Position numbers and translations under genes: made by a program
Origin: a virus
Strand: one strand, 5' to 3'
IMG/VR virus record: IMGVR_UViG_3300017971_000190
Coordinates: 1-64,000 of that record
DNA: 64,000 nt
Notes under the pieces: generated by a model
Databases searched by the model: none
What the model was told of the DNA's origin: nothing
What the model saw: only the letters and a program-made list of their open reading frames with translations
Shown here: piece after piece, positions 1-59,145 of the stretch
How positions within the stretch are numbered: position 1 is the stretch's first letter
Layout of the letters: each line of letters starts with the position of its first letter

Positions 1-213
1 ACAACTGAAATGTAATTGATGTTTGCCTTTGATATGGCTGAGGCCTACGTTGAGTAGGAGAGTTCTACCGGTGGGGTCGGGTACCGGGTAGACAACTGAA
101 ATGTAATTGATGTTTGCCTTTGATATGGCTGAGGCCTACGTTGAGTAGGAGAGTTCTACCGGTGGGGTCGGGTACCGGGTAGACAACTGAAATGTAATCG
201 ATGTTTGCCTTTC
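1..213. repeat. 91-bp tandem repeat, 2.3 copies
   Basis: Units start at 1, 92 and 183; the first two are identical over 91 bp and the third diverges after about 31 bp, where the 120-nt RNA at 214 begins. Each full unit holds two hairpins: CCTAC/GTAGG (44-58) and a longer one, 65-72 with 83-91, of 8 bp with one bulged G. The array may extend left of the window. The unit is too long and lacks spacers, so it is not a CRISPR. It could be duplicated RNA modules like the rest of this region. Confidence 0.9.
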
Positions 214-333
214 GTGGGTTTACACAGACTGTGGCTCGCAGAATCTGGGGAAGTAATTGGCGGTGAAGGAAGAAAATGAGCTTGGGGCATCTGGTGAAAC
301 ATCCAGACCGACTTTAACTGCCCGCCAACCCAC
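214..333 (+). ncRNA. Structured 120-nt RNA, copy A
   Basis: The element is closed by GTGGGTT (214-220) with AACCCAC (327-333). Inside are a hairpin at 225-247 (CAGA/TCTG stacked on CTGTG/CGCAG), a second stem GGCGG (259-263) with CCGCC (322-326), and a third CTGG/CCAG hairpin. Copy B at 1307 has the same length and conserved loops but a different inner stem that still pairs (GGTAAG/CTTACC), which is true covariation. I do not recognise the family. It lies directly before a tRNA-like element. Confidence 0.75.
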
Positions 334-341
334 ATAATTTT

Positions 342-427
342 TGAGGGGCTGATGACGGTCAGAGATTGCGACTTTAAACCACAAGTCGCTAGAATTAATA
401 ACTGTGGGTTCGAGTCCCACCCCCTCG
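342..427 (+). tRNA. tRNA-like element, anticodon unclear
   Basis: Acceptor TGAGGGG (342-348) pairs with CCCCTCG (421-427), and a perfect T-arm GTGGG-TTCGAGT-CCCAC directly precedes the 3' strand. The D-like hairpin CTGA-TGACGG-TCAG follows the acceptor with no U8-A9 linker. The anticodon-like arm is GCGACTT/AAGTCGC with an 8-nt loop, so it is too long and no anticodon can be read safely. It could be a decayed tRNA or a tRNA mimic. Confidence 0.5.
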
Positions 428-909
428 TTCCAGCAAGTTCCTAGAACATCTAAGAAGCTGTGATTGTATTGGGTCAGTGGCCTGTGCAGTACACAGTGGA
501 GACGGTTCGTTTAAGGAACGAGCTGCCTTTAGTCGAGATCCCGCGTTGGCGACTAGAGGGTTGGCAGTACCAATGCAGGGGTGCGAGGTGGGTAAGTCGG
601 TCTGGTAGATTTTACCTGTTTGTAATCCAGCGACACCACTTCAATAAATGGGACTAACAGGTCTCAACCATCTTTCGTTGTCACAAGTCGGTTGAGTATT
701 CACAAGATGACAACTAGGAGTGAGGACACTAGCTTGAGTGCTTCAACGGTTTCGGCTCAAGTCCATAGCCCTTCTCCGAAAAATTGATTGAAAACCGTTT
801 ACGCCTACACGGAGTTGGGGGTTCTACAGTTGTAGGAAGAGCTTAAAAACCCAAAGTAACAGGTGGGGCTACCGGGATGTATCTTTCCCTTTCAGTGTAA
901 GCCTGTTGC
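428..909 (+). other. Gene-free, hairpin-rich segment
   Basis: No convincing protein gene is visible. Perfect hairpins occur at 482-496 (CTGTG/CACAG), 561-573 (TTGG/CCAA), 663-696 (CTCAACC/GGTTGAG) and 733-761 (CTTGAG/CTCAAG). Around 595-640 there is a stretch resembling a tRNA D-arm followed by a TGT anticodon loop, but no matching T-arm or acceptor follows. The segment probably carries further structured RNAs of the same kind as its neighbours. Confidence 0.4.
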
Positions 910-967
910 GGTAGGGAGAGTGGTGGACACGCTTGCCCCAACCCTCTACCCGAATTTTTCGTTTTTG
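910..967 (+). terminator. Probable intrinsic terminator
   Basis: GGTAGGG (910-916) pairs with CCTCTACC (944-950) around a 27-nt loop, followed by T-runs at 955-959 and 962-966. The loop contains a GGTGGACACGC stretch typical of leucine/serine tRNA D-arms, so it may be a terminator built on tRNA debris. Confidence 0.5.
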
Positions 968-1039
968 GTAAATGGAAGGTTGGCCTAAAAGCAGCCATCC
1001 TTTAAAGAGTGAGGCGAAGACCTGTTGCTCGGATTTTTG

Positions 1040-1292
1040 CTGTGAGAGGCTTGGGTACGGTTAATCTCACAGGTTCCACGCGAGTCAAAAACGTAAAGTC
1101 GCTTTTTACGTAAATAGATTTGGGAGTGGCTCTCCCTAGCGTGCTGAAACAGGAGTACTTTCGGTTAAGTGAGGAGGCACCCCGGAGACGGTAAGGCCGA
1201 ATCCCTCTTTGGCGTAGCAGCACACCATTTACCTTTTTCAGCCCCGTACCAAGTGTCCTATGGAGTTCGGGTTTAAATACTCCTCTTGGTAC
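1040..1292 (+). ncRNA. Cluster of strong hairpins (structured RNA)
   Basis: There are consecutive perfect hairpins: CTGTGAGA/TCTCACAG (1040-1072), ACGTAAA/TTTACGT (1091-1111), GGGAG/CTCCC (1122-1136), and a two-level hairpin GTACCAAG/CTTGGTAC (1246-1292) enclosing GGAGT/ACTCC. No ORF with a ribosome binding site is seen. The boundaries of the individual RNAs are not defined; this is either one large RNA or several small ones. Confidence 0.45.
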
Positions 1293-1306
1293 GCATTTTC
1301 AACCTT

Positions 1307-1426
1307 GTGGGTGTACTCAGACTGTGGCTCGCAGAATCTGAGGCAGTAATTGGTAAGAGATGAAGCTAATGAGCTTGACACCTGTAAAATAAGTTGCAGG
1401 GTGACTAAAACTGCTTACCAGCCCAC
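1307..1426 (+). ncRNA. Structured 120-nt RNA, copy B
   Basis: This is the second copy of the RNA at 214-333, of identical length. The outer stem is GTGGGT (1307-1312) with GCCCAC (1421-1426), the inner stem GGTAAG (1352-1357) with CTTACC (1414-1419), and the conserved hairpin lies at 1318-1340. Shared single-stranded blocks are AGTAATTGG, AATGAGCTTG and GACTnnAACTGC. Stems differ from copy A but keep pairing. It is followed by a T6 run and a further RNA ending in a terminator. Confidence 0.75.
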
Positions 1427-1431
1427 ATTTT

Positions 1432-1514
1432 TTGAGTTGCCCCCTAAGCACTGGTCTAACGATCCTGCTTAGGTGATCGGGGAGTGGATGGTACCTGAAG
1501 CTCCCCACTTTTTT
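1432..1514 (+). terminator. Two-hairpin RNA ending in terminator
   Basis: CCTAAGC (1443-1449) pairs with GCTTAGG (1467-1473). It is followed by GGGGAG (1479-1484) with CTCCCC (1501-1506) and a T6 tract at 1509-1514, a standard Rho-independent terminator. It ends whatever transcript contains copy B of the 120-nt RNA. Confidence 0.6.
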
Positions 1515-1601
1515 GGAAGATGAACGGGAAGGCCGGGCATTAGTGCACAGTGTCGTACCGGTTCGACTCCGGTTTGGAAATCCAAGTTCTTGGCATCTTC
1601 C
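1515..1601 (+). ncRNA. tRNA-like RNA with displaced T-arm
   Basis: An 8-bp terminal stem GGAAGATG (1515-1522) / CATCTTCC (1594-1601) encloses a perfect T-arm ACCGG-TTCGACT-CCGGT (1557-1573). Unlike a tRNA, an extra hairpin TTGG-AAAT-CCAA (1574-1585) sits between the T-arm and the 3' acceptor strand. No anticodon arm is evident, so it is not a usable tRNA by the normal rules. Confidence 0.45.
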
Positions 1602-1983
1602 TTGAAAAACCGCCAGAGGAATTACACGTTATAATCTGGCCTCTACAGAGAGTAAAAAATGTGAGGTTGTGAGTGCTTTTCCAAAAACTCTCACCCGACA
1701 TAAGTTGGATTTAGTGTCTTGTGCAGTCATAGATGGGAGGCGTTGAACTCTGGTCACCAGGTTGGAGGGAGCCAACAGTGAAATACCATCCATTGGCATT
1801 AAATTGTATAAATACAACAATTTGTGTTGGGTAATTTTCAGTTGCAACCCCTGGGTTCTGAGGTATTTGCCGGTAGCCTGCAGAACAGGGAAGTCCCGTA
1901 GCCGGATGGGTTTGGTAGTAGAACCTCTGACCCTTTTAATTGAGTCAGTAGCTGTACACTAAGAAAAAACTACCACTTTTTCG
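1602..1983 (+). other. Gene-free, hairpin-rich segment
   Basis: No supported ORF. Hairpins: CCAGA/TCTGG (1613-1639), GTGAG/CTCAC (1669-1694, first copy of a dispersed GTTGTGAGTG element), CTGG-TCA-CCAG (1750-1760), GTTGG/CCAAC (1761-1776), TTGTAT/ATACAA (1804-1817), GTTCTG/CAGAAC (1855-1886) and CTGAC/GTCAG (1927-1948). Confidence 0.4.
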
Positions 1984-2049
1984 GAGCCTGTAATTTAAAT
2001 GGAAAAAGAAGCGTTAGCCTATTTCTAGGCTCGAATCCTAGCAGGTTCC
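1984..2049 (+). pseudogene. Shortened tRNA-like element
   Basis: Acceptor GAGCCTG (1984-1990) pairs with CAGGTTC (2042-2048), directly after T-arm CTAGG-CTCGAAT-CCTAG (2025-2041; C replaces the usual first T of the loop). U8-A9 is present. Only 34 nt remain for the D and anticodon arms, about 7 too few, and no 5-bp anticodon stem forms. It is probably a decayed tRNA or an armless mimic. Confidence 0.45.
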
Positions 2050-2304
2050 TTAAAGGGTGTAGTCTCCCTCCTGGGGAAACATTTCCTGGGTTATTTGGCC
2101 ATAAAAGACTACAACGCAAATCGAAAGTGCTTGTTGAATTGATTTGTGTAATCCGAACAAGCAGTTGTGAGTGCTTCTATAAACTCTCATTTGTGAGGTT
2201 CCTGGTTGTCCAAGGATGTAAACAGGTGAGTGCTTGGGTGTGTATTCTCGCTCAAGACTGGGCAGGCGAATTGACGCTAGCGAAGCTTGGCCTCACATTT
2301 TTAA
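2050..2304 (+). other. Gene-free segment with hairpins
   Basis: A long hairpin TGTAGTC (2058-2064) / GACTACA (2107-2113) is followed by the second copy of the GTTGTGAGTG element (2164-2190). A weak promoter-like pair, TTGACG (2271) and CACATT (2294), would start transcription at about 2305, the 5' end of the next tRNA-like element. An overlapping reading frame of about 100 codons (from 2127) has no ribosome binding site and crosses the RNA structures, so I do not call it. Confidence 0.35.
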
Positions 2305-2414
2305 TCCCTATGATAGAGGATCTACTGATCATTCTAGAACGGTCGGTTGGCAGAAAAAGCTTGTTGGACCCAACTTGTTTTTCTGTTGTCCTGGTTCGAT
2401 CCCAGGATGGGGAA
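2305..2414 (+). tRNA. tRNA-like element with giant variable arm
   Basis: Acceptor TCCCTAT (2305-2311) pairs with ATGGGGA (2407-2413), next to a perfect T-arm CCTGG-TTCGATC-CCAGG (2390-2406). Between the anticodon region and T-arm lies a very long hairpin (CAGAAAAA/TTTTTCTG with inner GTTGG/CCAAC), far larger than a Ser/Leu variable arm. The putative anticodon loop ATTCTAGAAC is 10 nt, so TCT (Arg) or even CTA (amber) could be read, neither safely. Confidence 0.45.
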
Positions 2415-2529
2415 CTAAAGCACTTGGTTGTGAGTGATTCCTAAAACTCTCGGTTGTTGGTATACCAGGGTACTAACAATCTTAACACCTGGAAAAGCGT
2501 TTTGGTAGTTATCGTCAATAAATTGCTCT
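2415..2529 (+). other. Third GTTGTGAGTG copy and hairpin
   Basis: The third copy of the dispersed GTTGTGAGTG...ACTCTC element lies at 2427-2452, followed by a CCAGG/CCTGG hairpin (2465-2492). No ORF is supported here. Confidence 0.4.
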
Positions 2530-2580
2530 ACTTGAGTGACGCCGGGCTCTCCTCAAGTGGTAAAACCCGGCAACCTTTTT
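2530..2580 (+). terminator. Intrinsic terminator with overlapping stem
   Basis: GCCGGG (2541-2546) pairs with CCCGGC (2566-2571), followed by T5 (2576-2580). The terminator loop contains CTCAAGT, which is complementary to ACTTGAG just upstream (2530-2536), giving either a pseudoknot or an alternative hairpin that would hide half of the terminator. It closes the 1-2.5 kb RNA region. Confidence 0.75.
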
Positions 2581-2587
2581 ATTTTTC

Positions 2588-2616
2588 TTGACTTCCTTCT
2601 TTTAGCACAGCATAAT
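2588..2616 (+). promoter_or_regulatory. sigma70-type promoter
   Basis: TTGACT (2588-2593), 17-bp spacer, CATAAT (2611-2616). It sits between the strong terminator and the gene at 2649, with a good ribosome binding site following. It matches the promoter pattern seen elsewhere in the window. Confidence 0.75.
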
Positions 2617-2648
2617 AATTGGTGTTAAACAGCTAAAAGGAGTCACAA

Positions 2649-3140
2649 ATGGTGCAGCAACACAAAATCCGAGAAGGCGTCCCCTACACCGATGGTAAAT
2701 CCATCAGAGTTATTGTTGATACTGAAGCTGGGAGTTTTGAGAACGGCACACCCGTGTATTATAGAACCACCCGAGACCTTTTCAAGGAAGTACACGAATG
2801 CTCTTTGGGAGCGTTTGCTCGGTGGGCAACACTGCAACACGAAGAGCTGTCAGATCAAATCGTACTGGCTATTCGCCCAAATAACGGAGCAGATGTTCTC
2901 CCAGACAATCTAGAAACCAGGGTGACAAGGATTTTGAAGACCGAGATTCTGAAAATTGAAGCCGGTTTGGGAACCGTTTCTTTTAATAAAAACGTAATTC
3001 CAGCCAAACTGCTGAGACAGTTGATTCAGGATTACGAAACACTCTACGGCTCAGAAACGCTTAATATCGAAGTAGTTTTCAGTCTTTTCCTTGACGGTGC
3101 GGTGGACCGCACGGAATTCCGGTTTAAGTCTGAACAATAA
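2649..3140 (+). CDS. Hypothetical protein (163 aa)
   Basis: I do not recognise this protein. It is soluble, with no signal peptide, membrane segment or cysteine cluster, and has a mixed alpha/beta composition. The ATG follows AAAAGGAG with ideal spacing. It is the first gene after a clear promoter (2588) and terminator, so it is expressed as its own unit, possibly with the tRNA-Glu region downstream. Its position at the head of an accessory/tRNA block suggests an early protein, but that is inference. Confidence 0.8.
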   Translation: MVQQHKIREGVPYTDGKSIRVIVDTEAGSFENGTPVYYRTTRDLFKEVHECSLGAFARWATLQHEELSDQIVLAIRPNNGADVLPDNLETRVTRILKTEILKIEAGLGTVSFNKNVIPAKLLRQLIQDYETLYGSETLNIEVVFSLFLDGAVDRTEFRFKSEQ

Positions 3141-3230
3141 AGGGAGTTCGAGCTAGCGCTTCTTCCTGAGGGGCTTTGGTCCTGAAAATTCTAGCACACA
3201 CACGCTTTTATCAAGAAAGGAGATAGGATT

Positions 3231-3266
3231 ATGAAGCGCATTCCTGTTAACCTAATCAACCTCTAA
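3231..3266 (+). CDS. 11-codon minigene / leader peptide
   Basis: A perfect AGAAAGGAG ribosome binding site precedes an ATG that opens only 11 codons (MKRIPVNLINL) before TAA. It is immediately followed by a folded RNA (3298-3368) and tRNA-Glu. The strong start signal on such a short frame suggests a leader peptide or attenuator-like role rather than a functional protein; the codons show no run of one amino acid. Confidence 0.4.
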   Translation: MKRIPVNLINL

Positions 3267-3297
3267 CCCTCCCACTTAAAGCTGAGTTAGCACTCAG

Positions 3298-3368
3298 GTC
3301 CGGTTGGTGGACGTACCAGAGGAAGTATTCTGTGTTCGTTGGTACCGACACAGGGTATTAAACCGGAC
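3298..3368 (+). ncRNA. tRNA-like folded RNA before tRNA-Glu
   Basis: An 8-bp terminal stem GTCCGGTT (3298-3305) / AACCGGAC (3361-3368) is followed by a D-arm-like GGT-GGACGT-ACC hairpin and a CTGTG...CACAG arm whose loop starts TTCG, like an enlarged T-arm. No anticodon arm can be drawn. It ends 5 nt before tRNA-Glu, so the two would be processed from one transcript. Confidence 0.4.
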
Positions 3369-3372
3369 ATCT

Positions 3373-3444
3373 GGCCCCATCGTTCAATGGTTAGGACACA
3401 GGATTTTCATTCCTGAGATCGGGTTTCGACTACCCGTGGGGTCA
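3373..3444 (+). tRNA. tRNA-Glu (TTC)
   Basis: This is a full cloverleaf: acceptor GGCCCCA/TGGGGTC, D-arm with GG, anticodon loop TTTTCAT with anticodon TTC, and T-arm CGGGT-TTCGACT-ACCCG, discriminator A, 72 nt. CCA is not encoded, so host nucleotidyl transferase must add it. Confidence 0.95.
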
Positions 3445-3474
3445 ATAAACTATTAAAAGAAAGGTCATACTACA

Positions 3475-3663
3475 ATGGTGGAAAAGGAAAACAGTTTCTA
3501 CAAAGAACAATTTTCTATTTTGCAAAGGCGTCTTCGTGGTTCCATAGAAGAAGCAAAGAAGGAAGGAGACACGAAGAGAGAGATTGCTCTTCTGAGGGTA
3601 GGTTGTGACGTTGCGAACATTTTGAAGGGTGTGAACATAAATTACAACCCTCCTGGTTACTAA
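3475..3663 (+). CDS. Hypothetical small charged protein (62 aa)
   Basis: Not recognised. It is a Lys/Glu-rich, probably alpha-helical small protein with one cysteine and a hydrophobic C-terminal end (NYNPPGY). The start is chosen at the ATG after AAAGAAAGG. It lies between tRNA-Glu and tRNA-Met and ends 7 bp before the latter, so mRNA and tRNA precursors share a transcript. Confidence 0.7.
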   Translation: MVEKENSFYKEQFSILQRRLRGSIEEAKKEGDTKREIALLRVGCDVANILKGVNINYNPPGY

Positions 3664-3670
3664 AAGTTTA

Positions 3671-3743
3671 GGGCTCGTCGTCTAATTGGTAAGGCTCCAA
3701 GCTCATAACTTGGTCATTCGGGTTTCGATCACCCGCGAGCCCA
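3671..3743 (+). tRNA. tRNA-Met (CAT)
   Basis: Acceptor GGGCTCG/CGAGCCC is perfect; the anticodon arm is CCAAG-CTCATAA-CTTGG (anticodon CAT) and the T-arm CGGGT-TTCGATC-ACCCG. The paired G1-C72 end suggests an elongator Met, or an Ile tRNA whose C34 is lysidine-modified; sequence alone does not settle which. Confidence 0.93.
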
Positions 3744-3746
3744 CTA

Positions 3747-3826
3747 TGTTACTGACTACCTGAGACCGCAGCTCAAAGGTTAGTAGCAGAACACCTCAAT
3801 TAAGTGACGGTAGAACACTGAGGTGT
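3747..3826 (+). ncRNA. Hairpins upstream of the 162-nt RNA
   Basis: TGAG/CTCA around 3760-3775 is followed by a perfect 8-bp hairpin ACACCTCA (3791-3798) / TGAGGTGT (3819-3826). The latter abuts the terminal stem of the next RNA and may stack on it coaxially. Confidence 0.45.
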
Positions 3827-3999
3827 GTGCAAGCAGGTACTACCGGGAAACTATTTTCTACCCTGTAACCACGTAGTTCCGAGGAGCACAAAAGAATGAT
3901 CCACCTTTTGTCCCTACCTGGAACTTAGCGTAGTTTCCCGCGTCTTTGGCGAAAGCCGTACTGCGTTGAGGATCAAACCTGCTTGCACTTTTTCTTTTT
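3827..3999 (+). ncRNA. Highly structured 162-nt RNA
   Basis: A perfect 12-bp terminal stem joins 3827-3838 to 3977-3988. Nested inside are GGGAAACTA/TAGTTTCCC (3845-3853 with 3931-3939), AGTTCC/GGAACT (3875-3880 with 3920-3925) and ACAAAAG/CTTTTGT (3888-3911), plus a GNRA-capped hairpin GGC-GAAA-GCC (3948-3957). A T-rich tract (3989-4000) follows, so the closing stem may act as terminator. I recognise no family: it is not RNase P, tmRNA or 6S by any motif I can see. tRNA-Leu begins at 4001. Confidence 0.7.
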
Positions 4000-4000
4000 T

Positions 4001-4082
4001 GCCCACATGGTGGAACAGGTAGACACGCGAATTTTAGGTGTTCGTGGCTAACGCCGTGGGAGTTCGAGTCTCTCTGTGGGCA
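4001..4082 (+). tRNA. tRNA-Leu (TAG)
   Basis: Acceptor GCCCACA/TGTGGGC, D-arm TGGTGGAACAGGTAGACACGC typical of Leu split by its loop, anticodon arm CGAAT-TTTAGGT-GTTCG (anticodon TAG), a class II variable arm, and a T-arm with TTCGAGT. 82 nt, no encoded CCA. Confidence 0.93.
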
Positions 4083-4084
4083 CT

Positions 4085-4174
4085 AGGTCATTCTAATTTT
4101 AAGTCCTGGTAATGGTGCTAGGCAAACGTGACAAGCTTTCCATCCTTCACGTTCGAGAAAAGTTAGAATGACCT
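4085..4174 (+). ncRNA. 90-nt RNA closed by 12-bp stem
   Basis: AGGTCATTCTAA (4085-4096) pairs perfectly with TTAGAATGACCT (4163-4174). Inside is AACGTG/CACGTT (4125-4153), with a possible CCTGG/CTAGG arm, giving a three-way junction. It starts 3 nt after tRNA-Leu and ends 43 nt before the next gene, so it could be a processed small RNA or a leader of that gene. Confidence 0.6.
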
Positions 4175-4217
4175 TAAATTTGTTGGGAGTTTGAGCTAAA
4201 CAAAAGAGGTACTTAAA

Positions 4218-4550
4218 ATGATTTTCACCTATGAGATAAAACGTCACAGTGTGGATTTCCTTTTCGAGGACGGCAGCTTTCATTCAATAGTGGTGGGACA
4301 AGGGCCTGGTTACTGGTACCGAATCATTTCAAAATTGAGAGAGTTGGGAAAAGAGATAAATCCGGAAGACTTTGACCAGGGTATAGAACGTCTATACTAC
4401 GATTACGCCACCGAGGAACTGAGAGGAAAAACAGAAAAGCAGAAAGAATTGGGATACTTTACCTGTCCCCAGTGCAACGTGATTTATCCTTGTCGTTCTT
4501 TCAAATATCAAAATCCTTGCGACAACTGTCGTTATGTAAAAATTACCTAG
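4218..4550 (+). CDS. Zinc-ribbon hypothetical protein (110 aa)
   Basis: The N-terminal 80 residues are unrecognised. The C-terminus carries a zinc ribbon with C83-x2-C86 and C101-x2-C104 (plus C92), which probably binds one zinc ion. Such small phage zinc ribbons often contact nucleic acid or protein partners, but no function can be assigned. The ATG follows AAAAGAGG. The stop is immediately followed by a conserved folded RNA motif (4551). Confidence 0.75.
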   Translation: MIFTYEIKRHSVDFLFEDGSFHSIVVGQGPGYWYRIISKLRELGKEINPEDFDQGIERLYYDYATEELRGKTEKQKELGYFTCPQCNVIYPCRSFKYQNPCDNCRYVKIT

Positions 4551-4612
4551 TCACTTCGTGGTTAGGAGTGGGGCAATGGAATTGAGAAACCCCCTAGAGG
4601 TTATTGGGCAAA
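4551..4612 (+). ncRNA. Conserved 62-nt RNA motif, copy 1
   Basis: It begins with the CAC-TTC-GTG mini-hairpin followed by GGAGTGGGGCAnTGGnATT and ends with GGTTATTGGGCAAA. The same order of blocks recurs at 4888-4950 with different connecting sequence, which suggests a folded RNA under selection. Both copies precede a tRNA or tRNA-like element. Confidence 0.5.
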
Positions 4613-4639
4613 AAAGAAAGCAGGAAAGATAGATTAATA

Positions 4640-4700
4640 GTTCACATGGTAGTTTAGGTACCAGCGGGAAACCGTGTAGGTTCGAGTCCTACTGTGGGCA
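4640..4700 (+). ncRNA. Cloverleaf tRNA mimic without anticodon arm
   Basis: All parts pair: acceptor GTTCACA (4640-4646) / TGTGGGC (4693-4699), a D-like hairpin TGGTA-GTTTAGG-TACCA, a minimal hairpin CGG-GAAA-CCG with a GNRA tetraloop where the anticodon arm should be, and a perfect T-arm GTAGG-TTCGAGT-CCTAC. Discriminator A at 4700. Its 3' end resembles tRNA-Leu at 4001. At 61 nt it cannot decode; it may be a tRNA mimic or decoy, or a tRNA-Leu remnant. Confidence 0.55.
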
Positions 4701-4703
4701 CTA

Positions 4704-4874
4704 GTTGGTAGTTCTGGGAGACCTTGGTGAAACACTCCATGGGAACCCACGGTAAAAACGAGACGTGGTAGGTTGTGTAGGTAACTACAGAGCCCTTCTA
4801 TCTAGTTACTCCTTGAGGGTAACGGGGGTAGTCGGATCTTGTTTTTAGAAACAAGGCCCACCTGAACTACCAAC
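4704..4874 (+). ncRNA. Highly structured 171-nt RNA
   Basis: An 11-bp perfect terminal stem joins GTTGGTAGTTC (4704-4714) to GAACTACCAAC (4864-4874). Internal hairpins are CCACG/CGTGG (4747-4768), TGTAG-GTAA-CTACA with a GNRA loop (4776-4789), GTTAC/GTAAC (4805-4823) and CTTGTTT/AAACAAG (4838-4855). It resembles the RNA at 3827 in size and plan (long closing stem, GNRA hairpin) but not in sequence. Family unknown. Confidence 0.7.
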
Positions 4875-4887
4875 AACTTCTTCCTAA

Positions 4888-5056
4888 GCACTTCGTGTTT
4901 GGGAGTGGGGCACTGGCATTTTAAAGTCCAACTCCATGTGGTTAGGGCAAACCAGTTCAAGACTTGGGCCTTTTGGCTAGCCCAGATGTATTTCTGATTG
5001 CCGACAAGTTACAGGCTGGTTGATACCAATTACCACGAAAGAAAGAGCTAGCCACT
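4888..5056 (+). ncRNA. Conserved RNA motif, copy 2, and hairpins
   Basis: Positions 4888-4950 repeat the CACTTCGTG...GGAGTGGGGCA...GGTTAGGGCAAA motif of 4551. Downstream, TGGGC/GCCCA (about 4964-4985) and AACCAG/CTGGTT form further stems. The segment ends just before tRNA-Ser and contains no ORF. Confidence 0.5.
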
Positions 5057-5059
5057 ATG

Positions 5060-5144
5060 GGAAGGATGACCGAGCGGCTGAAGGTACACGCCTGCTAAGC
5101 GTGCGTAGGGAAACCTACCGAGGGTTCGAATCCCTCTCCTTCCG
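5060..5144 (+). tRNA. tRNA-Ser (GCT)
   Basis: Acceptor GGAAGGA/TCCTTCC, anticodon arm CACGC-CTGCTAA-GCGTG (GCT), long variable arm CGTAGG-GAAA-CCTACCG as expected for class II, T-arm GAGGG-TTCGAAT-CCCTC. Discriminator G, as in bacterial serine tRNAs. Confidence 0.95.
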
Positions 5145-5150
5145 ACGCAG

Positions 5151-5246
5151 TTGGCCCCGCTGCACATCCTATCGAGAATAATTACCACAGATGTGTGTAC
5201 ACAAAGATGCTAGGATCTTTATTTGTGGTGGTTATTCTAGGGGCAA
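5151..5246 (+). ncRNA. Long-hairpin RNA (96 nt)
   Basis: TTGGCCCC (5151-5158) pairs with GGGGCAA (5240-5246) with one bulge. An inner helix of AGAATAA+ACCACA (5175-5189) with TGTGGT+TTATTCT (5224-5238) is broken only by a TT/GG internal loop. It lies between tRNA-Ser and the tRNA-like element at 5249. Confidence 0.55.
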
Positions 5247-5248
5247 TT

Positions 5249-5378
5249 GGCAGAGTGGCGAAACGAAAAGAGGCCCATACTAGTTAACCTCTTTCTTTGG
5301 TAAACGCGCGGTAACTCCGTGATTGGTCAATCAGTTAACTGGTTCACTATCTTCCAGGTTCAAATCCTGGCTCTGTCA
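5249..5378 (+). tRNA. tRNA-like element with ~60-nt insertion
   Basis: Acceptor GGCAGAG (5249-5255) pairs with CTCTGTC (5371-5377), and the perfect T-arm CCAGG-TTCAAAT-CCTGG (5354-5370) is in its correct place, discriminator A. The intervening stretch is about 98 nt rather than 41 and contains hairpins AAAGAGG/CCTCTTT, CGG/CCG and GATT-GGTC-AATC. It is far too short for a group I intron. No anticodon can be assigned. Confidence 0.5.
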
Positions 5379-5461
5379 AGATGCTATCGCATACACTGCC
5401 TTCAAAAAGTGTATTGACAAATTAAAAAATGTTGTCACAAGACTACTAGGAGGTATTAATC

Positions 5462-5632
5462 ATGGAAAGACTTATTTATCGCTTTATTCCTAACGTTGAG
5501 ACCTTAATTGAGCAATACGAGTTGGAAGGTTTCGAGGTGCGGGGATACAGTGAGTACAGTTCTGACGGGATTCCTAGGGTGGCTGAGATGGTCAAGTGGG
5601 TTTCTGATAAACCGTCTCAAGAAAAGGAATGA
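5462..5632 (+). CDS. Hypothetical small protein (56 aa)
   Basis: Not recognised. This short soluble protein starts at an ATG preceded by the very strong ribosome binding site AGGAGGT. It lies between a tRNA-like element and tRNA-Pro. A TTGACA box is present at 5414 but no good -10 follows, so it is probably read with the RNA cluster. Confidence 0.75.
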   Translation: MERLIYRFIPNVETLIEQYELEGFEVRGYSEYSSDGIPRVAEMVKWVSDKPSQEKE

Positions 5633-5657
5633 TTTTTGATTTTCTTCTCTTTCTTTT

Positions 5658-5732
5658 CGGGGAATAACTCAGTCTGGTAGAGTGCCTGCTTTGGGAGCAG
5701 GAAGTTCGCAGGTTCGAATCCTGTTTCCCCGA
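5658..5732 (+). tRNA. tRNA-Pro (TGG)
   Basis: Acceptor CGGGGAA/TTCCCCG, D-arm with CTCAGTCTGGTAGAG, anticodon arm CCTGC-TTTGGGA-GCAGG (TGG), T-arm GCAGG-TTCGAAT-CCTGT. C1-G72 is the usual proline identity pair. No encoded CCA. Confidence 0.95.
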
Positions 5733-5735
5733 TTA

Positions 5736-5768
5736 AGTTTATTTTTCAAAGTACACGAAAAATAAACT
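5736..5768. terminator. Perfect 11-bp A/T hairpin
   Basis: AGTTTATTTTT (5736-5746) pairs with AAAAATAAACT (5758-5768). With A-runs on one arm and T-runs on the other it could terminate in either direction, though GC content is very low; it might instead separate tRNA-Pro from the next tRNA-like unit for processing. Confidence 0.45.
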
Positions 5769-5798
5769 ACCTCACTGGTACAGAGGTTAAAGTACTGT

Positions 5799-5959
5799 GG
5801 ACAAGTGTTGTGCAGAGGGTAGCACAGAGAGTAAGCTAACGAAAAGCGAAACCTGCCGTGCGAGAAGAGCAGGTCCACGGTGTAATCGGAATGCCTCTAG
5901 TGTGGTGCACCACAGCTAGTTTTAATGCCAATGAGAGGTTCGATTCCTCTCCTTGTCCA
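5799..5959 (+). tRNA. tRNA-like element with ~85-nt insertion
   Basis: Acceptor GGACAAG (5799-5805) pairs with CTTGTCC (5952-5958). The D-arm GTGC-AGAGGGTA-GCAC is normal and the T-arm GAGAGG-TTCGATT-CCTCTC is correctly placed (6 bp). Between them lie about 105 nt with hairpins ACCTGC/GCAGGT and GTGGTGCACCAC instead of a 17-nt anticodon arm. It may be a tRNA interrupted in the anticodon region or a larger tRNA-like RNA. Confidence 0.5.
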
Positions 5960-5961
5960 AA

Positions 5962-6205
5962 TGTTGGGTTGGTACTTTACCAACGACAACAGCTTTCTTC
6001 GGGAGCCCGGAAGAAAGGCTTAACCAGCGCCAGTGAGCTTCAATGGGTCGTGCACACACCGCGTTGAAGATGACTCTGGGGTAGTAGGAAGGTGCACAGA
6101 ACGGCAAACTAGGCTTTTCCTAGGTTGGCTTCTAGGCACCGATCCCTCCTTCAGTGGTGTGTGGGGCTTGGTTGTTCGTTCACACAGGGCTCAATTTTAA
6201 AAATT
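5962..6205 (+). ncRNA. Structured RNA between tRNA-like unit and gene
   Basis: Hairpins in series: TTGGT/ACCAA (5969-5983), a long GCTTTCTTC/GAAGAAAGGC arm (5992-6019), CTTCAA/TTGAAG (6038-6069), then GGTGC/GCACC (6091-6140) enclosing AACTAGG/CCTAGGTT (6107-6126). The overlapping reading frames here follow the hairpins and lack ribosome binding sites. Unknown function. Confidence 0.5.
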
Positions 6206-6219
6206 ATTAAAGGTGAAAA

Positions 6220-6417
6220 ATGAAGCTAACTAAAAAACAAGAAAAATTGGTAAAAGAGGTTATTGGAGACGGCACCGATTTTCCAAAATTTACAAACGAC
6301 CCTTATGTTAATCACAGAGTAGACATGCTTGTTTGTGACTGTCCACCTTGGGAGGAGTTGAGTAAGGAAGAGCAAGATTTGTATTTTGAGGAAGTAGAAG
6401 CTTCTAAAATGGAATAA
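6220..6417 (+). CDS. Hypothetical acidic protein (65 aa)
   Basis: Not recognised. The first 20 residues are Lys-rich, then the protein becomes acidic with a C-x-C pair in the middle and an EE-rich helical end. The ATG follows AAAGGTGA. It sits between folded RNA and tRNA-Gln (6439). Confidence 0.7.
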   Translation: MKLTKKQEKLVKEVIGDGTDFPKFTNDPYVNHRVDMLVCDCPPWEELSKEEQDLYFEEVEASKME

Positions 6418-6438
6418 TTATTAATAGTATTGTTTCTT

Positions 6439-6510
6439 TGAGGCGTAGGCAAACGGTAAGCCACGAATTTTTGGTGTTCGGCATTGGAGGTTCGAATCCT
6501 CCCGCCTCAA
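6439..6510 (+). tRNA. tRNA-Gln (TTG)
   Basis: Acceptor TGAGGCG/CGCCTCA, D-arm with AAACGG loop, anticodon arm CGAAT-TTTTGGT-GTTCG (TTG), T-arm GGAGG-TTCGAAT-CCTCC. U1-A72 at the end of the acceptor is typical of glutamine tRNAs. Confidence 0.94.
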
Positions 6511-6512
6511 AA

Positions 6513-6662
6513 ATGAAAAAAGAAAAACCTTTGAAGGATTTACTGCCGAATCCATGTTGTTGCAGTTTTCCCATGGAACCATTGAAAGTAACAAAACCAC
6601 TTAGAGAAAAATTGTGGAAGTGTCTCAAGTGTGGTAAGTTGATCTATAAATACAAAAACTAG
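6513..6662 (+). CDS. Small zinc-ribbon protein (49 aa)
   Basis: A CCC triplet at residues 15-17 and a C-x2-CG pair near residue 38 suggest a small zinc-binding protein. The chosen ATG lies 2 nt after the tRNA-Gln discriminator base, with no ribosome binding site; tRNA 3'-end processing would leave an essentially leaderless mRNA. Reading the frame further upstream would run through the tRNA, so this start is preferred. Confidence 0.5.
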   Translation: MKKEKPLKDLLPNPCCCSFPMEPLKVTKPLREKLWKCLKCGKLIYKYKN

Positions 6663-6665
6663 TGC

Positions 6666-6755
6666 GGAGTGTATAGTGTTTAAATGGCAACACGGCTAGT
6701 GGCTAACGGGTCATACCTGCCAGGCAAAAGTGGGTTCAAATCCTGCAACACTCCA
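6666..6755 (+). tRNA. tRNA-like element, 90 nt, anticodon unclear
   Basis: Acceptor GGAGTGT (6666-6672) pairs with ACACTCC (6748-6754). The D-arm GTGTT-TAAATGGC-AACAC and T-arm GTGGG-TTCAAAT-CCTGC are present, but one extra A separates T-stem and acceptor. The middle contains TCATACC and CTGCCAG (possible CAT or GCC anticodons) without a proper 5-bp stem. Confidence 0.45.
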
Positions 6756-6824
6756 TATAATGTTTAGCGAGAGACAAGCAGTTGGGCTCTCGTGGCGACT
6801 TTGTAGAGGGTGTACAATTTTTCT

Positions 6825-6897
6825 GGGCGATTAACTCAGTTGGCAGAGTGCAATCTTTACGCGGTTGAAGTCACAGGTTCAAACCCTGTATCGCCCA
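6825..6897 (+). tRNA. tRNA-Val (TAC)
   Basis: Acceptor GGGCGAT/ATCGCCC, D-arm CTCAGTTGGCAGAG, anticodon arm CAATC-TTTACGC-GGTTG (TAC), T-arm ACAGG-TTCAAAC-CCTGT, discriminator A. A CGAGAG/CTCTCG hairpin lies just upstream (6770-6792). Confidence 0.95.
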
Positions 6898-6905
6898 AAA
6901 AGAAG

Positions 6906-6934
6906 TTGACTTTACCACTACTCTGTGTTAGCCT
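6906..6934 (+). promoter_or_regulatory. sigma70-type promoter for small RNA
   Basis: TTGACT (6906-6911), 17-bp spacer, TAGCCT (6929-6934) preceded by TGT, an extended -10. Transcription would start at about 6941, immediately before a folded, terminator-ended RNA with no ORF. Confidence 0.6.
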
Positions 6935-6940
6935 TTTCTT

Positions 6941-7053
6941 AATCCGTGAGAGATCAGGCTCAACTGCTCTCACGGGGTTGTCAACGGGGTGGGCCAATCC
7001 CCTGACGGCGGGAGCTGCGTTTCCTTTTGGAAGCAGTCTCCCGTTTTAATTTT
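6941..7053 (+). ncRNA. Stand-alone small RNA (~110 nt)
   Basis: Between its own promoter (6906) and terminator (7009-7053) lie a hairpin CCGTGAGAG/CTCTCACGG and a GGGG/CCCC arm. No start codon with a ribosome binding site is inside. This is the best-delimited small RNA of the region. It lies upstream of the gene at 7073 and could instead be an attenuated leader of that gene. Confidence 0.6.
7009..7053 (+). terminator. Intrinsic terminator
   Basis: CGGGAGCTGC (7009-7018) pairs with GCAG-t-CTCCCG (7033-7043), followed by TTTTAATTTT. It closes the small RNA and separates the RNA region from the following gene block. Confidence 0.8.
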
Positions 7054-7072
7054 AGAAAGGAAACAAAGCACC

Positions 7073-7273
7073 ATGGTAGAAGAAAAAGAAACCTACGAAG
7101 CTATCAATTTTGGTTGGGACGGTGATGATTTTGTAACCGAAGATGTTACAGGCAAAATTCGTCGCTATCACGGTGCCAAAATTACCGACGTTAAGCGAGA
7201 GTGTTCTGTGGAAGTTCAAGACGGTAAAGTGATTGGACACTTTTCGTTTCAATTACCGAAAAAGAAAGGCTAA
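7073..7273 (+). CDS. Hypothetical protein (66 aa)
   Basis: Not recognised. It is a small acidic protein rich in beta-forming residues, ending in a basic KKKG tail. The ATG follows GAAAGGAAACA; longer upstream frames cross the terminator and are rejected. It ends 4 bp before the next gene, suggesting one operon. Confidence 0.7.
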   Translation: MVEEKETYEAINFGWDGDDFVTEDVTGKIRRYHGAKITDVKRECSVEVQDGKVIGHFSFQLPKKKG

Positions 7274-7277
7274 GAGA

Positions 7278-7565
7278 ATGACTATGGTAAAAGAACACGA
7301 ACTTAAGTATGGGGTAGATGGTTGCCTCTTAACCTGGCAAAACCCTTTTCCTGAAGAAGTAACCTGTGCTTGTTGTGGAAAAGAAGGTGCACGTTTAGCT
7401 TTTGTTCTACAAGAATCAGGCAAAAAGGAGCACGCTTGTAATTTATATCAAAACGATCCGGATGGAGAGGGATTTTGGGTGCACGATTCAGCTGCTTTTG
7501 CAGTTTATTTGTGCAGAGATATTAATTGCCCTGAAAAAGCTACCGCTAAGTGGAATCAAGCTTAA
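7278..7565 (+). CDS. Cys-rich zinc-binding hypothetical protein (95 aa)
   Basis: It contains a C30-x-C32-C33 cluster and C79/C84 near the end, spaced as a split zinc site. No known domain. The start at 7278 is chosen because the longer frame overlaps the preceding gene; a second ATG follows 2 codons later. It ends 9 bp before tRNA-Lys. Confidence 0.7.
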   Translation: MTMVKEHELKYGVDGCLLTWQNPFPEEVTCACCGKEGARLAFVLQESGKKEHACNLYQNDPDGEGFWVHDSAAFAVYLCRDINCPEKATAKWNQA

Positions 7566-7574
7566 AATATTTTT

Positions 7575-7647
7575 GGGTCCTTAGCTCAGCTGGTAGAGCA
7601 CCGGACTTTTAATCCGTAGGTCTTCGGTTCAAACCCGAAAGGACTCA
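7575..7647 (+). tRNA. tRNA-Lys (TTT)
   Basis: Acceptor GGGTCCT/AGGACTC with one wobble, D-arm GCTC/GAGC, anticodon arm CGGAC-TTTTAAT-CCG.. (TTT), T-arm TCGGG-like TTCGG-TTCAAAC-CCGAA. Canonical 73 nt. It directly precedes the RNA ligase gene, which may repair cleaved tRNAs. Confidence 0.95.
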
Positions 7648-7762
7648 TTAGTTCACCCATCAGAATAGTAAGTTTTAAGGAGAAAGATCATGAAGAAGAT
7701 TGTGCCTTCAAATTGTTGTAAACAGAATCAAGTATTTAAACTTAAACGAAAGAAGAACTGTT

Positions 7763-8377
7763 TTGAAAACATACCCAAGTATGGTTTATCCTCCCTTTGG
7801 AGGATTGAAGGAGTACCTTCACACCTTTGCTAAGTTGGACGGCAGCAATCTCAGATTTGAATGGAGCAAGAAAAAAGGTTGGTACAAAGTTGGAACCCGG
7901 CATCGTCTTGTAGACGAAAGTGATTCTATTTTTGGAAAAGCTCCCCTTATTTTTCAAGAAACTTTGGCTGACCAGTGCGAGAAAATTTGTAGAGATAATC
8001 GTTGGCAGAGAGCTGTGATTTTCTGCGAGTACTATGGACCACAAAGCTTTGCTGGCCTGCATGAAATTGGAGGTACGATGACGCTAACGGTTATAGACGT
8101 AGCTCCTTACAAAAAAGGCATTTTACCACCTACTGATTTTCTAAAACTGTTTGGAGAATTAGGGCCGCATTACCTGGGATACTTGAAGTGGAATTTTAAT
8201 TTCATAAATCGAGTTCATCAGGGTTTAGAGCCTGAAGCTAGTTTTGAAGGAGTAGTTGGTAAAGCTAAAGGGAAAGGAAATACACTACTTCTCTACAAAA
8301 CCAAAACTCAAGCCTGGAAAGATGAAGTTAAAAAACGATACAGTAAGAAGGAAGCAGAAAAAATAATTCATAGCTAA
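7763..8377 (+). CDS. RNA ligase (nucleotidyltransferase superfamily)
   Basis: The N-terminus has a YPSM motif and then KLDGSN, the motif I nucleophile (K24), followed by a CEYYG element, EGVVGK (motif IV) and a KTK motif V, as in T4 Rnl2-type ATP-dependent RNA ligases. Such enzymes reseal broken RNA, classically tRNAs cut by host anticodon nucleases, and this gene follows tRNA-Lys. I prefer the TTG at 7763; a GTG at 7700 would add 21 unlike residues. A better ribosome binding site serves an ATG at 7690 in another frame (47 codons), so an initiation oddity or frameshift is possible. Confidence 0.85.
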   Translation: MKTYPSMVYPPFGGLKEYLHTFAKLDGSNLRFEWSKKKGWYKVGTRHRLVDESDSIFGKAPLIFQETLADQCEKICRDNRWQRAVIFCEYYGPQSFAGLHEIGGTMTLTVIDVAPYKKGILPPTDFLKLFGELGPHYLGYLKWNFNFINRVHQGLEPEASFEGVVGKAKGKGNTLLLYKTKTQAWKDEVKKRYSKKEAEKIIHS

Positions 8378-11303: not shown

Positions 11304-11627
11304 GTGTGTTATTTTCAGGACATTGCTGTAAAAAAAGTTGTAGTAGAAGTCATTTCCGAGCTGGTGGGAAAGCGTAAGCGCTTCACCGGTTGGGAAGTGA
11401 ATCAAAAATTACAAAACCGCAAAGGCTTTGCTCACCTTCCCCCACCCTGGCAGATCAGCTCCTATGTACGGGAACTGTTTAATGGGCATAACAGTGCTTT
11501 TTCAGGTTATGCCTGTTATCCAGTTGATGGAGGCCCCTTGCTCTATTTCCCAATTCCGTACTATGTGAGAAATCATGTCGAAAAAATCCAAAAAGAAATC
11601 CAAACGGAAGGCCAAACCGAAAAGTAA
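11304..11627 (+). CDS. Hypothetical protein (107 aa)
   Basis: GTG start after AAAGGAAAG. Residues 20-70 resemble a small winged-helix-like fold (GWEVNQKLQ, then SSYVRELF), and it ends in a charged coiled tail. The last 53 bp overlap the PARP-like gene in another frame, so the two are translationally coupled and perhaps partners, for example antidote or regulator of the transferase. That pairing is inference. Confidence 0.65.
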   Translation: MCYFQDIAVKKVVVEVISELVGKRKRFTGWEVNQKLQNRKGFAHLPPPWQISSYVRELFNGHNSAFSGYACYPVDGGPLLYFPIPYYVRNHVEKIQKEIQTEGQTEK

Positions 11628-12426
11628 CCCTTCTGTTTCGATGCCCAGTGTTCAGGAACTTTTTGGTTCCAGTTGTCGTTATCGCCTTAGCAGTTCTTTT
11701 CGTGGACCTCAATTAGAAGGTTACGAATTCTTATGTGCTTTCGAAAACAAAGTACACTCTTACCACACCCCCACAATGCAGAAGCTTGGCAATATTAAAC
11801 AAGCTTGGCATGGTACCAATAAGGCTGCACTTAAAAGCATTGCTGTGGATGGATTACTCACGCCTTTTCAGCGTCGAAAGCGAGATCGCTGGACTAGCAT
11901 ACACGGTATGTTTGGACCAGGAATTTATTTAGCTCCTAACATTGAAAAAGCGGCTATGTTCGCATGGCAGCATAAGCATTTGAAGTTTGTTCTTCAATGC
12001 TATGTTGCTTTGGGAAAACCTCATTTTGCTACTCAAACAGGAAACTATTACGAAACAGCTGAAATGGAAGACAAGCATAGTGTCATAGGTGGAAGAGGAT
12101 CACTGACTGGAGCTTGGGGTGGTAGACTCTTAAACGAAGAGTGGGTAATTTTCGATAATCAACAAGCTACTGTAGACATGGTACTCGTGTACAGATGCGT
12201 GGAAACTCCTAAGGCTACCCCATTTCGAGGCTCGATTGGACGACGATTTTATAACAGTAGTAGAGAACCACAAGGTGTTGTTCGTTACCACCCTTGCAAA
12301 CGAAATGGCAAGCTTTGTCGCAATGCTTTTGGCTCTGGTGGCTGTGTGGAAAAAGGTATAACTACTGGAGCGAGTGCCTTTTCAGATTACTGCAGAGATT
12401 ATCAAGTATCCTTGATTCACAAATAA
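11575..12426 (+). CDS. PARP-type ADP-ribosyltransferase (283 aa)
   Basis: The core (residues 75-207) matches the PARP catalytic fold: WHGT (H79), FGPGIYLA (Y118), an ALGK strand and NEEWVIFDNQQ, where E189 aligns with the PARP1 catalytic glutamate. The H-Y-E triad is thus intact, predicting transfer of ADP-ribose from NAD+. The first 18 residues are a Lys/Arg tail that may bind nucleic acid; the C-terminal 75 residues include several cysteines. Phages use ADP-ribosylation to remodel host transcription or counter defence (T4 Alt/Mod are other families). The target is unknown. Confidence 0.8.
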   Translation: MSKKSKKKSKRKAKPKSNPSVSMPSVQELFGSSCRYRLSSSFRGPQLEGYEFLCAFENKVHSYHTPTMQKLGNIKQAWHGTNKAALKSIAVDGLLTPFQRRKRDRWTSIHGMFGPGIYLAPNIEKAAMFAWQHKHLKFVLQCYVALGKPHFATQTGNYYETAEMEDKHSVIGGRGSLTGAWGGRLLNEEWVIFDNQQATVDMVLVYRCVETPKATPFRGSIGRRFYNSSREPQGVVRYHPCKRNGKLCRNAFGSGGCVEKGITTGASAFSDYCRDYQVSLIHK

Positions 12427-58521: not shown

Positions 58522-59145
58522 ATGACAGGAAAATTAATTGCATTTGAGGGGGCTGATGAAAGTGGGACCACCACACAAGTGAAAGCTGTGGCTGACTACT
58601 TCTCTGGAAAGTTAGAAAAACCAGTACATACTACTTTTGAGCCTTCCTCTTTTCCAATAGGAAAAGTTATTAAAAGTTGGTTGCGAAAAGAGCTACCTCG
58701 TCCTAGTGAGAGAGTGCTAGCCACTTCGTTTATGGTGGACAGATTGCACCATTGGGAAAGTCAAATTAAGCCAATACTGATGGATGGTAGACACGTATTT
58801 ACAGATCGTTTTAGTCTTTCTACTTTTGTGTACCAAAGTGTTAAGCAACCTTTAAAGTGGTTGCAAAAGCTGGATTATTTTCTAGGAGTTCCATTTCCAG
58901 ATTTGACTTTGATTTTAGATCTTCCTGTAGATGTAGCTTTTGAGCGCATATCTAAGCGTGGTGAAGAAAAAGAAATATATGAGGAAAAAGAGTTTCAAAA
59001 AATAGTTGCAAATGGTTATCGTACTCTTCCCTCGGAATTAGATATGCCTTATAAAATTGTTGATGTTTCTCAGTCCGAAAGGGAAGTGACAGAGGACATC
59101 ATAAGTATTCTCCAACCAATTTTGTCTTATGCCGGGATCGCATAG
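58522..59145 (+). CDS. tmk: Thymidylate kinase-like protein, Walker lysine missing
   Basis: The fold is clear: FEGADESGTTTQ P-loop, TFEPSS, the DRF motif, PDLTLILDLP and RISKRG. Canonical dTMP kinases have GxxxSGKTTQ; here the P-loop lysine (position 16) is threonine, coded ACC. Without it phosphoryl transfer should be much reduced unless another lysine substitutes, so it may bind dTMP or act differently. ATG abuts the topoisomerase stop. Its last 15 bp form the 5' acceptor end of tRNA-Thr. Confidence 0.8.
   Translation: MTGKLIAFEGADESGTTTQVKAVADYFSGKLEKPVHTTFEPSSFPIGKVIKSWLRKELPRPSERVLATSFMVDRLHHWESQIKPILMDGRHVFTDRFSLSTFVYQSVKQPLKWLQKLDYFLGVPFPDLTLILDLPVDVAFERISKRGEEKEIYEEKEFQKIVANGYRTLPSELDMPYKIVDVSQSEREVTEDIISILQPILSYAGIA

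What the first reader, a model, noticed from the sequence alone, without database searches (positions are those of the whole stretch)
5799..5959. tRNA-like element interrupted in anticodon region
Acceptor, D-arm and T-arm are normal, but about 105 nt with its own hairpins replaces the anticodon arm. The position matches that of tRNA introns, yet no known intron fits.
Basis: partly seen in the sequence, partly recalled or inferred. Interest (0 to 1): 0.7.

Follow-up and report, generated by a model that had tools for sequence, protein, structure and literature searches.

The report
Phage tRNA-like RNA lacking an anticodon
A large phage carries, inside its tRNA gene array, an RNA that keeps three arms of a tRNA but has 105 nucleotides where the anticodon arm should be; cutting the extra piece out in one step would not give a normal tRNA, so it is probably a tRNA look-alike with another job.

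Summary
Observation confirmed; intron reading not supported. At 5799-5958 there is a perfect 7-bp acceptor stem (8 bp with T5798-A5959), a 6-bp D-arm with a tRNA-like loop and a 6-bp T-arm with a standard loop. Exactly 105 nt (5828-5932) stand where the anticodon arm belongs. The acceptor/T-arm composite is far beyond chance (0 in 300 shuffles); the insert's own hairpins are not (fold z = +0.1). No single excision leaves an anticodon arm, whereas an intron-like tRNA of another phage passes the same test. It is not a tmRNA (A3-U70 instead of G3-U70; no ARAGORN or Rfam hit), and no homologue was found. It is one of five acceptor/T-arm composites that ARAGORN misses in this array (0.003 expected), in a region that also holds two 23S rRNA mimics (L11-binding centre, L1 stalk) and, just downstream, an RNA ligase gene. 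Best reading: a non-decoding tRNA-like RNA, matured like a tRNA and carrying another domain in place of the anticodon arm, perhaps a decoy for tRNA-binding factors. Structure is well supported; function is inferred. Main rival: a remodelled, functionless tRNA relic.

The parts
5799..5805 (+). acceptor stem, 5' strand GGACAAG (T5798 adds an 8th pair with A5959)
   Evidence: sequence; pair probability 0.98-1.0
5808..5827 (+). D-arm: 6-bp stem, loop AGAGGGTA
   Evidence: sequence; 0.0002 of 20,000 shuffles; pair probability 0.28-0.48
5828..5932 (+). 105-nt insert in place of the anticodon arm
   Evidence: sequence; no anticodon arm recoverable; fold z = +0.10
5851..5874 (+). hairpin ACCTGC/GCAGGT inside the insert
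   Evidence: pair probability 0.77-0.85
5897..5919 (+). hairpin CTAGTGTGG-TGCA-CCACAGCTAG, placed like a long variable arm and followed by TTTT
   Evidence: inner pairs 0.91-0.93, outer 0.41-0.60; also scored as terminator-like, 1 found against 1.1 expected
5933..5951 (+). T-arm: 6-bp stem, loop TTCGATT
   Evidence: sequence; pair probability 0.98-0.99
5952..5958 (+). acceptor stem, 3' strand CTTGTCC; A5959 in the discriminator place
   Evidence: sequence
342..427 (+). another acceptor+T-arm element without a normal anticodon arm
   Evidence: tRNA-Sec model only 23 bits, below gathering
1984..2048 (+). another acceptor+T-arm element, 65 nt
2305..2413 (+). another acceptor+T-arm element, 109 nt
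4640..4700 (+). 61-nt tRNA-like element, acceptor with 2 G-T pairs, anticodon arm reduced to a mini-hairpin
   Evidence: (20.1 bits, below gathering)
5249..5377 (+). another acceptor+T-arm element, 129 nt
7700..8377 (+). RNA ligase gene directly downstream of the tRNA array
   Evidence: PHROG 548 RNA ligase, E = 2.7e-7

Best explanation
It is a non-decoding tRNA-like RNA. The acceptor stem, D-arm and T-arm fold as in a tRNA (supported at sequence level) and the anticodon arm is replaced by a 105-nt domain (shown). The acceptor/T-arm half would let the host's tRNA machinery cut the 5' end (RNase P), trim the 3' end and add CCA, giving a stable RNA (inferred from what these enzymes recognise). 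The RNA then acts as a tRNA look-alike that cannot decode. The most likely use is to occupy or distract tRNA-binding factors, for example tRNA-targeting nucleases, or to carry the inserted domain as a cargo (inferred). It sits in an array with further acceptor/T-arm elements and two 23S rRNA mimics, which fits a set of RNA mimics of translation parts.
For: Perfect acceptor and T helices and a tRNA-like D-arm beyond chance. No single excision leaves a decoding tRNA. Five acceptor/T composites not called by ARAGORN, this one included, lie in the array, against a mean of 0.0033 in 300 shuffles. None of the phage's 8 array tRNAs encodes CCA, so its absence here is normal. Comparable elements occur in other phages: Pseudomonas phage UNO-G1W1 (L003:919-1040, followed by ACCA), and tRNAs with a replaced anticodon loop in Aeromonas phage 4_4572 (L007:5136-5255) and Vibrio phage MS02 (L055:4002-4115). 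Precedents: tmRNA, a tRNA-like half without an anticodon whose 5' end RNase P cuts (PMC3985003, passages), and the YrlA tRNA-like domain, suggested as a possible competitive inhibitor of an anticodon nuclease (PMC7790460, passage).
Against: No homologue was found, so no covariation can be tested. The insert folds no better than shuffles. The D-arm has an about equally stable competitor. Of the six other tRNA-like elements tested in the window, five have no D-arm by the same rule and one has 3 bp, so they may not be one class; the rule also misses 2 of the 8 canonical array tRNAs. Transcription, processing and any binding partner are untested.
Confidence: 0.55

Rival explanations
1. A remodelled tRNA relic: a former tRNA gene whose anticodon half was replaced by unrelated sequence, kept by chance in a fast-changing array, with no function.
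For: Insert fold z = +0.10; no homologue; other arrays hold odd tRNA-like genes with different inserts.
Against: All acceptor, T and D pairs are intact, although a neutral relic should lose some; a plain insertion would leave the anticodon stem on both sides, as in L027, and none remains.
Confidence: 0.27
2. A tRNA precursor whose insert is removed by splicing, with the neighbouring RNA ligase sealing the halves.
For: Position of the insert; RNA ligase at 7700-8377; intron-like inserts do occur in phage tRNAs (L027: 57 nt, 8 excision solutions).
Against: 0 excision solutions for this element with short or long variable regions, and none by ARAGORN's intron mode. Two-step or trans-splicing was not tested. 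RNA ligases are common in phages (general knowledge).
Confidence: 0.1
3. A miniature tmRNA (tRNA-like domain plus message-like part).
For: Same plan: acceptor and T-arm kept, anticodon replaced by a long part. The fold with helix 5807-5823/5915-5932 resembles a tmRNA-type long helix (tmRNA helix recalled).
Against: Third acceptor pair is A-U; in tmRNA it is completely conserved G-U (PMC3985003). No ARAGORN tmRNA and no Rfam tmRNA hit. The D-arm is regular by sequence, not deformed as in tmRNA. No tag-like frame seen by eye.
Confidence: 0.03

Closest known systems
tmRNA tRNA-like domain (SsrA)
   Same: acceptor stem and T-arm kept, no anticodon, long extra part; expected RNase P substrate
   Different: A3-U70 not G3-U70, regular D-arm by sequence, 160 nt, no recognised tag frame, no Rfam or ARAGORN match
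YrlA (bacterial Y RNA with a tRNA-like domain)
   Same: non-coding RNA with a tRNA-like domain; suggested as a possible nuclease inhibitor (PMC7790460, passage)
   Different: no Rfam Y RNA match; no Ro60 (TROVE) gene in this phage record; here the RNA ends lie at the acceptor as in a tRNA
Intron-containing tRNAs
   Same: extra sequence at the anticodon position
   Different: excision leaves no anticodon arm; too short for a self-splicing group I intron (general knowledge)
Phage tRNAs that evade anticodon nucleases (PMC10264068, title and start of abstract seen in the listing)
   Same: phage tRNA genes changed at the anticodon loop
   Different: those are changed by mutations in the loop; this one has no anticodon arm

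Membership tests
tRNA | acceptor stem and T-arm with conserved T-loop | tested here: met
tRNA | D-arm next to the acceptor | tested here: met
   (p = 0.0002); energy alone ambiguous
tRNA | anticodon arm with 7-nt loop | tested here: not met
tRNA | match to the Rfam or ARAGORN tRNA model | tested here: not met
   intron mode
intron-containing tRNA | one excision restores an anticodon arm | tested here: not met
   0 solutions; control L027 gives 8
tmRNA | G3-U70 alanine identity pair | tested here: not met
   A3-U70; requirement from PMC3985003
tmRNA | tag reading frame | tested here: inconclusive
   no ARAGORN tmRNA; three frames read by eye only
tmRNA | tRNA-like half without anticodon | tested here: met
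YrlA / Y RNA | Ro60 (TROVE) partner gene | tested here: inconclusive
   none in the 221,679-base phage record; host unknown
RNase P RNA (specificity-domain lead) | sequence match to RNase P RNA | tested here: not met
   alignment score 20 against a shuffle mean of 21.4 for E. coli rnpB, 218 of 300 shuffles at least as high; no Rfam match

The most novel reading that the evidence does not exclude
This phage, and other phages with tRNA arrays, encode a set of RNA mimics of translation parts: tRNA bodies without an anticodon, a 23S L11-binding (GTPase-centre) copy and, in this phage at least, a 23S L1-stalk copy. They work together as decoys or sponges for the host's tRNA-binding factors, ribosomal proteins and tRNA-targeting defences.
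Probability: 0.3. Interest if true: 0.85.

Novelty: new variant of a known kind. Interest (0 to 1): 0.5.

Why it matters
Phage tRNA arrays are usually read as decoding genes, and annotation tools skip what does not fit. If these arrays also carry non-decoding tRNA look-alikes and rRNA mimics, part of the long-standing question of why phages keep tRNA arrays becomes testable: the RNAs can be made and tested for RNase P processing, protein binding and protection against tRNA-cutting defences.

Tried and rejected
Homologue searches that found none: exact 19-mer in viral contigs, degenerate core pattern, blastn of 5770-6215 in phages at E up to 10 (292 records, best E = 2, 9% of the query), the element in 26 records (8 of 26 with hits at E <= 10, all of 12-21 bases) and in 5 more (1 of 5, hits of 11-19 bases), 3' end pattern in genome contigs. 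Relatives of the RNA ligase (2, at 37-39% identity) and of a structural protein (3, at 43-44%, on records of 22-44 kb) gave no second copy; the latter 3 records have no Rfam tRNA at E <= 0.001. The DNA polymerase found no relative in viral contigs.

RNase P specificity-domain resemblance: a lead by eye, rejected (and no Rfam match). Similarity of 5760-5960 to E. coli 16S, 23S or 5S: none (z 0.1, 0.3, 0.0). Rfam hits overlapping the element are sub-threshold matches to human lncRNA regions (5766-5881 and 5755-5891), judged chance.

Antisense lead: 5921-5933 is a perfect 13-nt complement of 1791-1803 beside the L1-stalk mimic. Shuffled elements reach 13 nt in the array in 2% and in the whole window in 13% of 300 trials, so it is weak.

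Count caveats: of 19 composites in 37 loci (strands without an ARAGORN tRNA were skipped, except for the window and L039; some loci are of the same record), 11 had no anticodon arm by my rule. Three (L013:2800, L021:2673, window 1984) are of about tRNA size, the first two probably near-normal tRNAs that fail only the loop rule; L016:2723 and L024:764 may also be tRNAs with unusual arms. The same loose rule calls an arm in window 5249 and L007:5136, probably by chance. One search had an off-by-one (variable region of 3 nt left out), repaired.

Full report
Setting. The window is the first 64,000 bases of a 221,679-base virus record. ARAGORN finds nine tRNAs, eight of them between 3372 and 7648. 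The left 7.6 kb is largely without long genes and rich in structured RNA. An RNA ligase gene follows the array (7700-8377; PHROG 548, E = 2.7e-7; no Pfam hit at E <= 0.01, and no solved-structure hit at E <= 1).

At 5799-5958 the acceptor (7 of 7 Watson-Crick, 8 with T5798-A5959), D-arm (6 bp, loop AGAGGGTA) and T-arm (6 bp, loop TTCGATT) are present, and exactly 105 nt separate D-arm and T-arm. The 8+6 pair composite occurs once in window 1-7650 and not once in 300 shuffles. The D-arm in that place has a shuffle frequency of 0.0002. Energy alone is less clear: acceptor 0.81-1.0, T-stem 0.98-0.99, D-stem 0.28-0.48, with a competing long helix 5807-5823/5915-5932 at about 0.40-0.46. The whole element folds better than shuffles (z = -2.1; -2.4), but the insert alone does not (z = +0.10).

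It is not an interrupted tRNA in the simple sense. I listed every contiguous excision that would leave a 5-bp anticodon stem and a Y32-U33...R37 loop: none for a short variable region, and none when the variable region may be up to 45 nt, so that the hairpin at 5897-5919 is kept as a variable arm. With 4 pairs allowed, 4 to 6 stems appear, as in over 90% of shuffles, and none has such a loop. As a control, a 132-nt tRNA from another phage (L027:6232-6363) gives 8 solutions with 57 nt removed. ARAGORN's intron mode finds nothing at the element. Of six insert-bearing elements of other phages searched, four match Rfam tRNA at 46.5-52.4 bits and two do not; this element does not match at E up to 10.

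It is not a known tRNA-like RNA either. In tmRNA the third acceptor pair is completely conserved G-U and the D-arm is deformed (PMC3985003, passages); here the pair is A-U and the D-arm is regular by sequence. The phage record has no TROVE (Ro60) gene. Similarity to RNase P RNA was tested and failed.

It is not alone. Five acceptor+T-arm composites that ARAGORN does not call, this one included, lie in the masked array, against a shuffle mean of 0.0033; outside the array the + strand has one composite in 56 kb, presumably the tRNA-Thr at 59131. By the D-arm rule, however, none of the six other tRNA-like elements tested has more than 3 D-stem pairs, so they need not be one class. Across 37 loci there are 19 such composites, 11 without an anticodon arm by my rule, 8 of these 86 nt or longer (caveats in Tried and rejected). 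Examples are Pseudomonas phage UNO-G1W1 L003:919-1040, followed by ACCA, and Vibrio phage MS02 L055:4002-4115. The insert of the window element shows no clear similarity to the ten loci compared (scores 24-32; one shuffled insert per locus 24-42).

Mechanism. Shown: the tRNA-like half at sequence level and the loss of the anticodon arm. Inferred: maturation by RNase P and CCA addition; the phage's 8 array tRNAs also lack encoded CCA. Inferred with less confidence: a decoy for tRNA-binding factors. A published precedent is the suggestion that the YrlA tRNA-like domain may competitively inhibit an anticodon nuclease (PMC7790460, passage); that phage tRNAs evade tRNA-targeting defences is the subject of PMC10264068 (title and start of abstract in the listing; a find for four terms in the 22,760 characters held gave nothing).

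Literature. Searches for phage tRNA-like or array non-coding RNAs and for phage rRNA mimics listed no paper whose title or abstract start describes either. One listed review (PMC10931766, passages) says that L1-binding sites on bacterial mRNAs mimic the 23S site, so rRNA mimicry as such is known; its passages name no phage-encoded mimic. Most subscription papers are not in the library, so this is weak evidence of novelty.

Verdict. A real tRNA-like element that has lost its decoding arm, in an array of similar oddities. As a single-copy sequence without known relatives its function cannot be settled here. The wider pattern, tRNA look-alikes beside 23S rRNA mimics, is the more interesting lead.

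Noticed in passing
window 979-1230: Mimic of the 23S rRNA L11-binding (GTPase-associated) centre: 979-1008 matches E. coli 23S 1059-1088 at 27 of 30 bases (z 8.5), with a long insertion before the last part of helix 44. Relatives in five other phages, each next to an annotated tRNA (the first part is diverged in the Aeromonas one), and 27 IMG/VR loci, not all independent and one of them phage pf16 by its length. Of 28 loci with the window, 22 lie within 2 kb of a same-strand tRNA and 19 show the helix-44 3' part by a fixed pattern.
   Followed up: partly
window 1720-1794: Mimic of the 23S rRNA L1 stalk (E. coli 23S 2109-2182; z 16.4). A near-identical copy (23S 2109-2180) lies at bases 9-80 of a 42,788-base viral contig (L073); the long flank is not rRNA, but the copy sits at the contig end, so it may be an assembly artefact. 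The other hit of that scan, L074, is ordinary 23S rRNA. Bacterial L1 mRNAs are known to mimic this site (PMC10931766, passage).
   Followed up: partly
L054:15530-15900, L055:3700-3900 and 4190-4250; L007:5136-5255, L039:2820-2937, L055:4002-4115: Aeromonas phage 4_4572 and Vibrio phage MS02 carry tRNAs whose anticodon loop is replaced by a stem followed by a motif like UUACAGCAACCC, and tandem stand-alone hairpins with the same motif circularly permuted around anticodon-arm-like hairpins (UUU, GCU, CAU). L055 also seems to hold a split, permuted tRNA (3' half near 3955, 5' half near 4120). Possibly fragmented tRNA genes.
   Followed up: partly
L027:6232-6363 (minus strand): tRNA with a 57-nt intron-like insert in the anticodon loop; several excision points leave a decoding loop, e.g. 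CTTTGAC (UUG) or CTTGGAC (UGG).
   Followed up: partly
window 217-340 and 1310-1433: Two diverged copies of a structured RNA sharing CAGACTGTGGCTCGCAGAATCTG; the exact core was not found in viral contigs.
   Followed up: partly
window 5960-6200: 241-nt strongly structured non-coding stretch (fold z -2.9) between the element and the next gene; no Rfam match at gathering score.
   Followed up: no
window 11575-12426: Protein with a PARP catalytic domain (Pfam PF00644, E = 6e-13), a possible ADP-ribosyltransferase.
   Followed up: no
window 5921-5933 and 1791-1803: 13-nt perfect complement between the linker before the T-arm and the sequence beside the L1-stalk mimic; reached in the array by 2% of shuffles.
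   Followed up: partly
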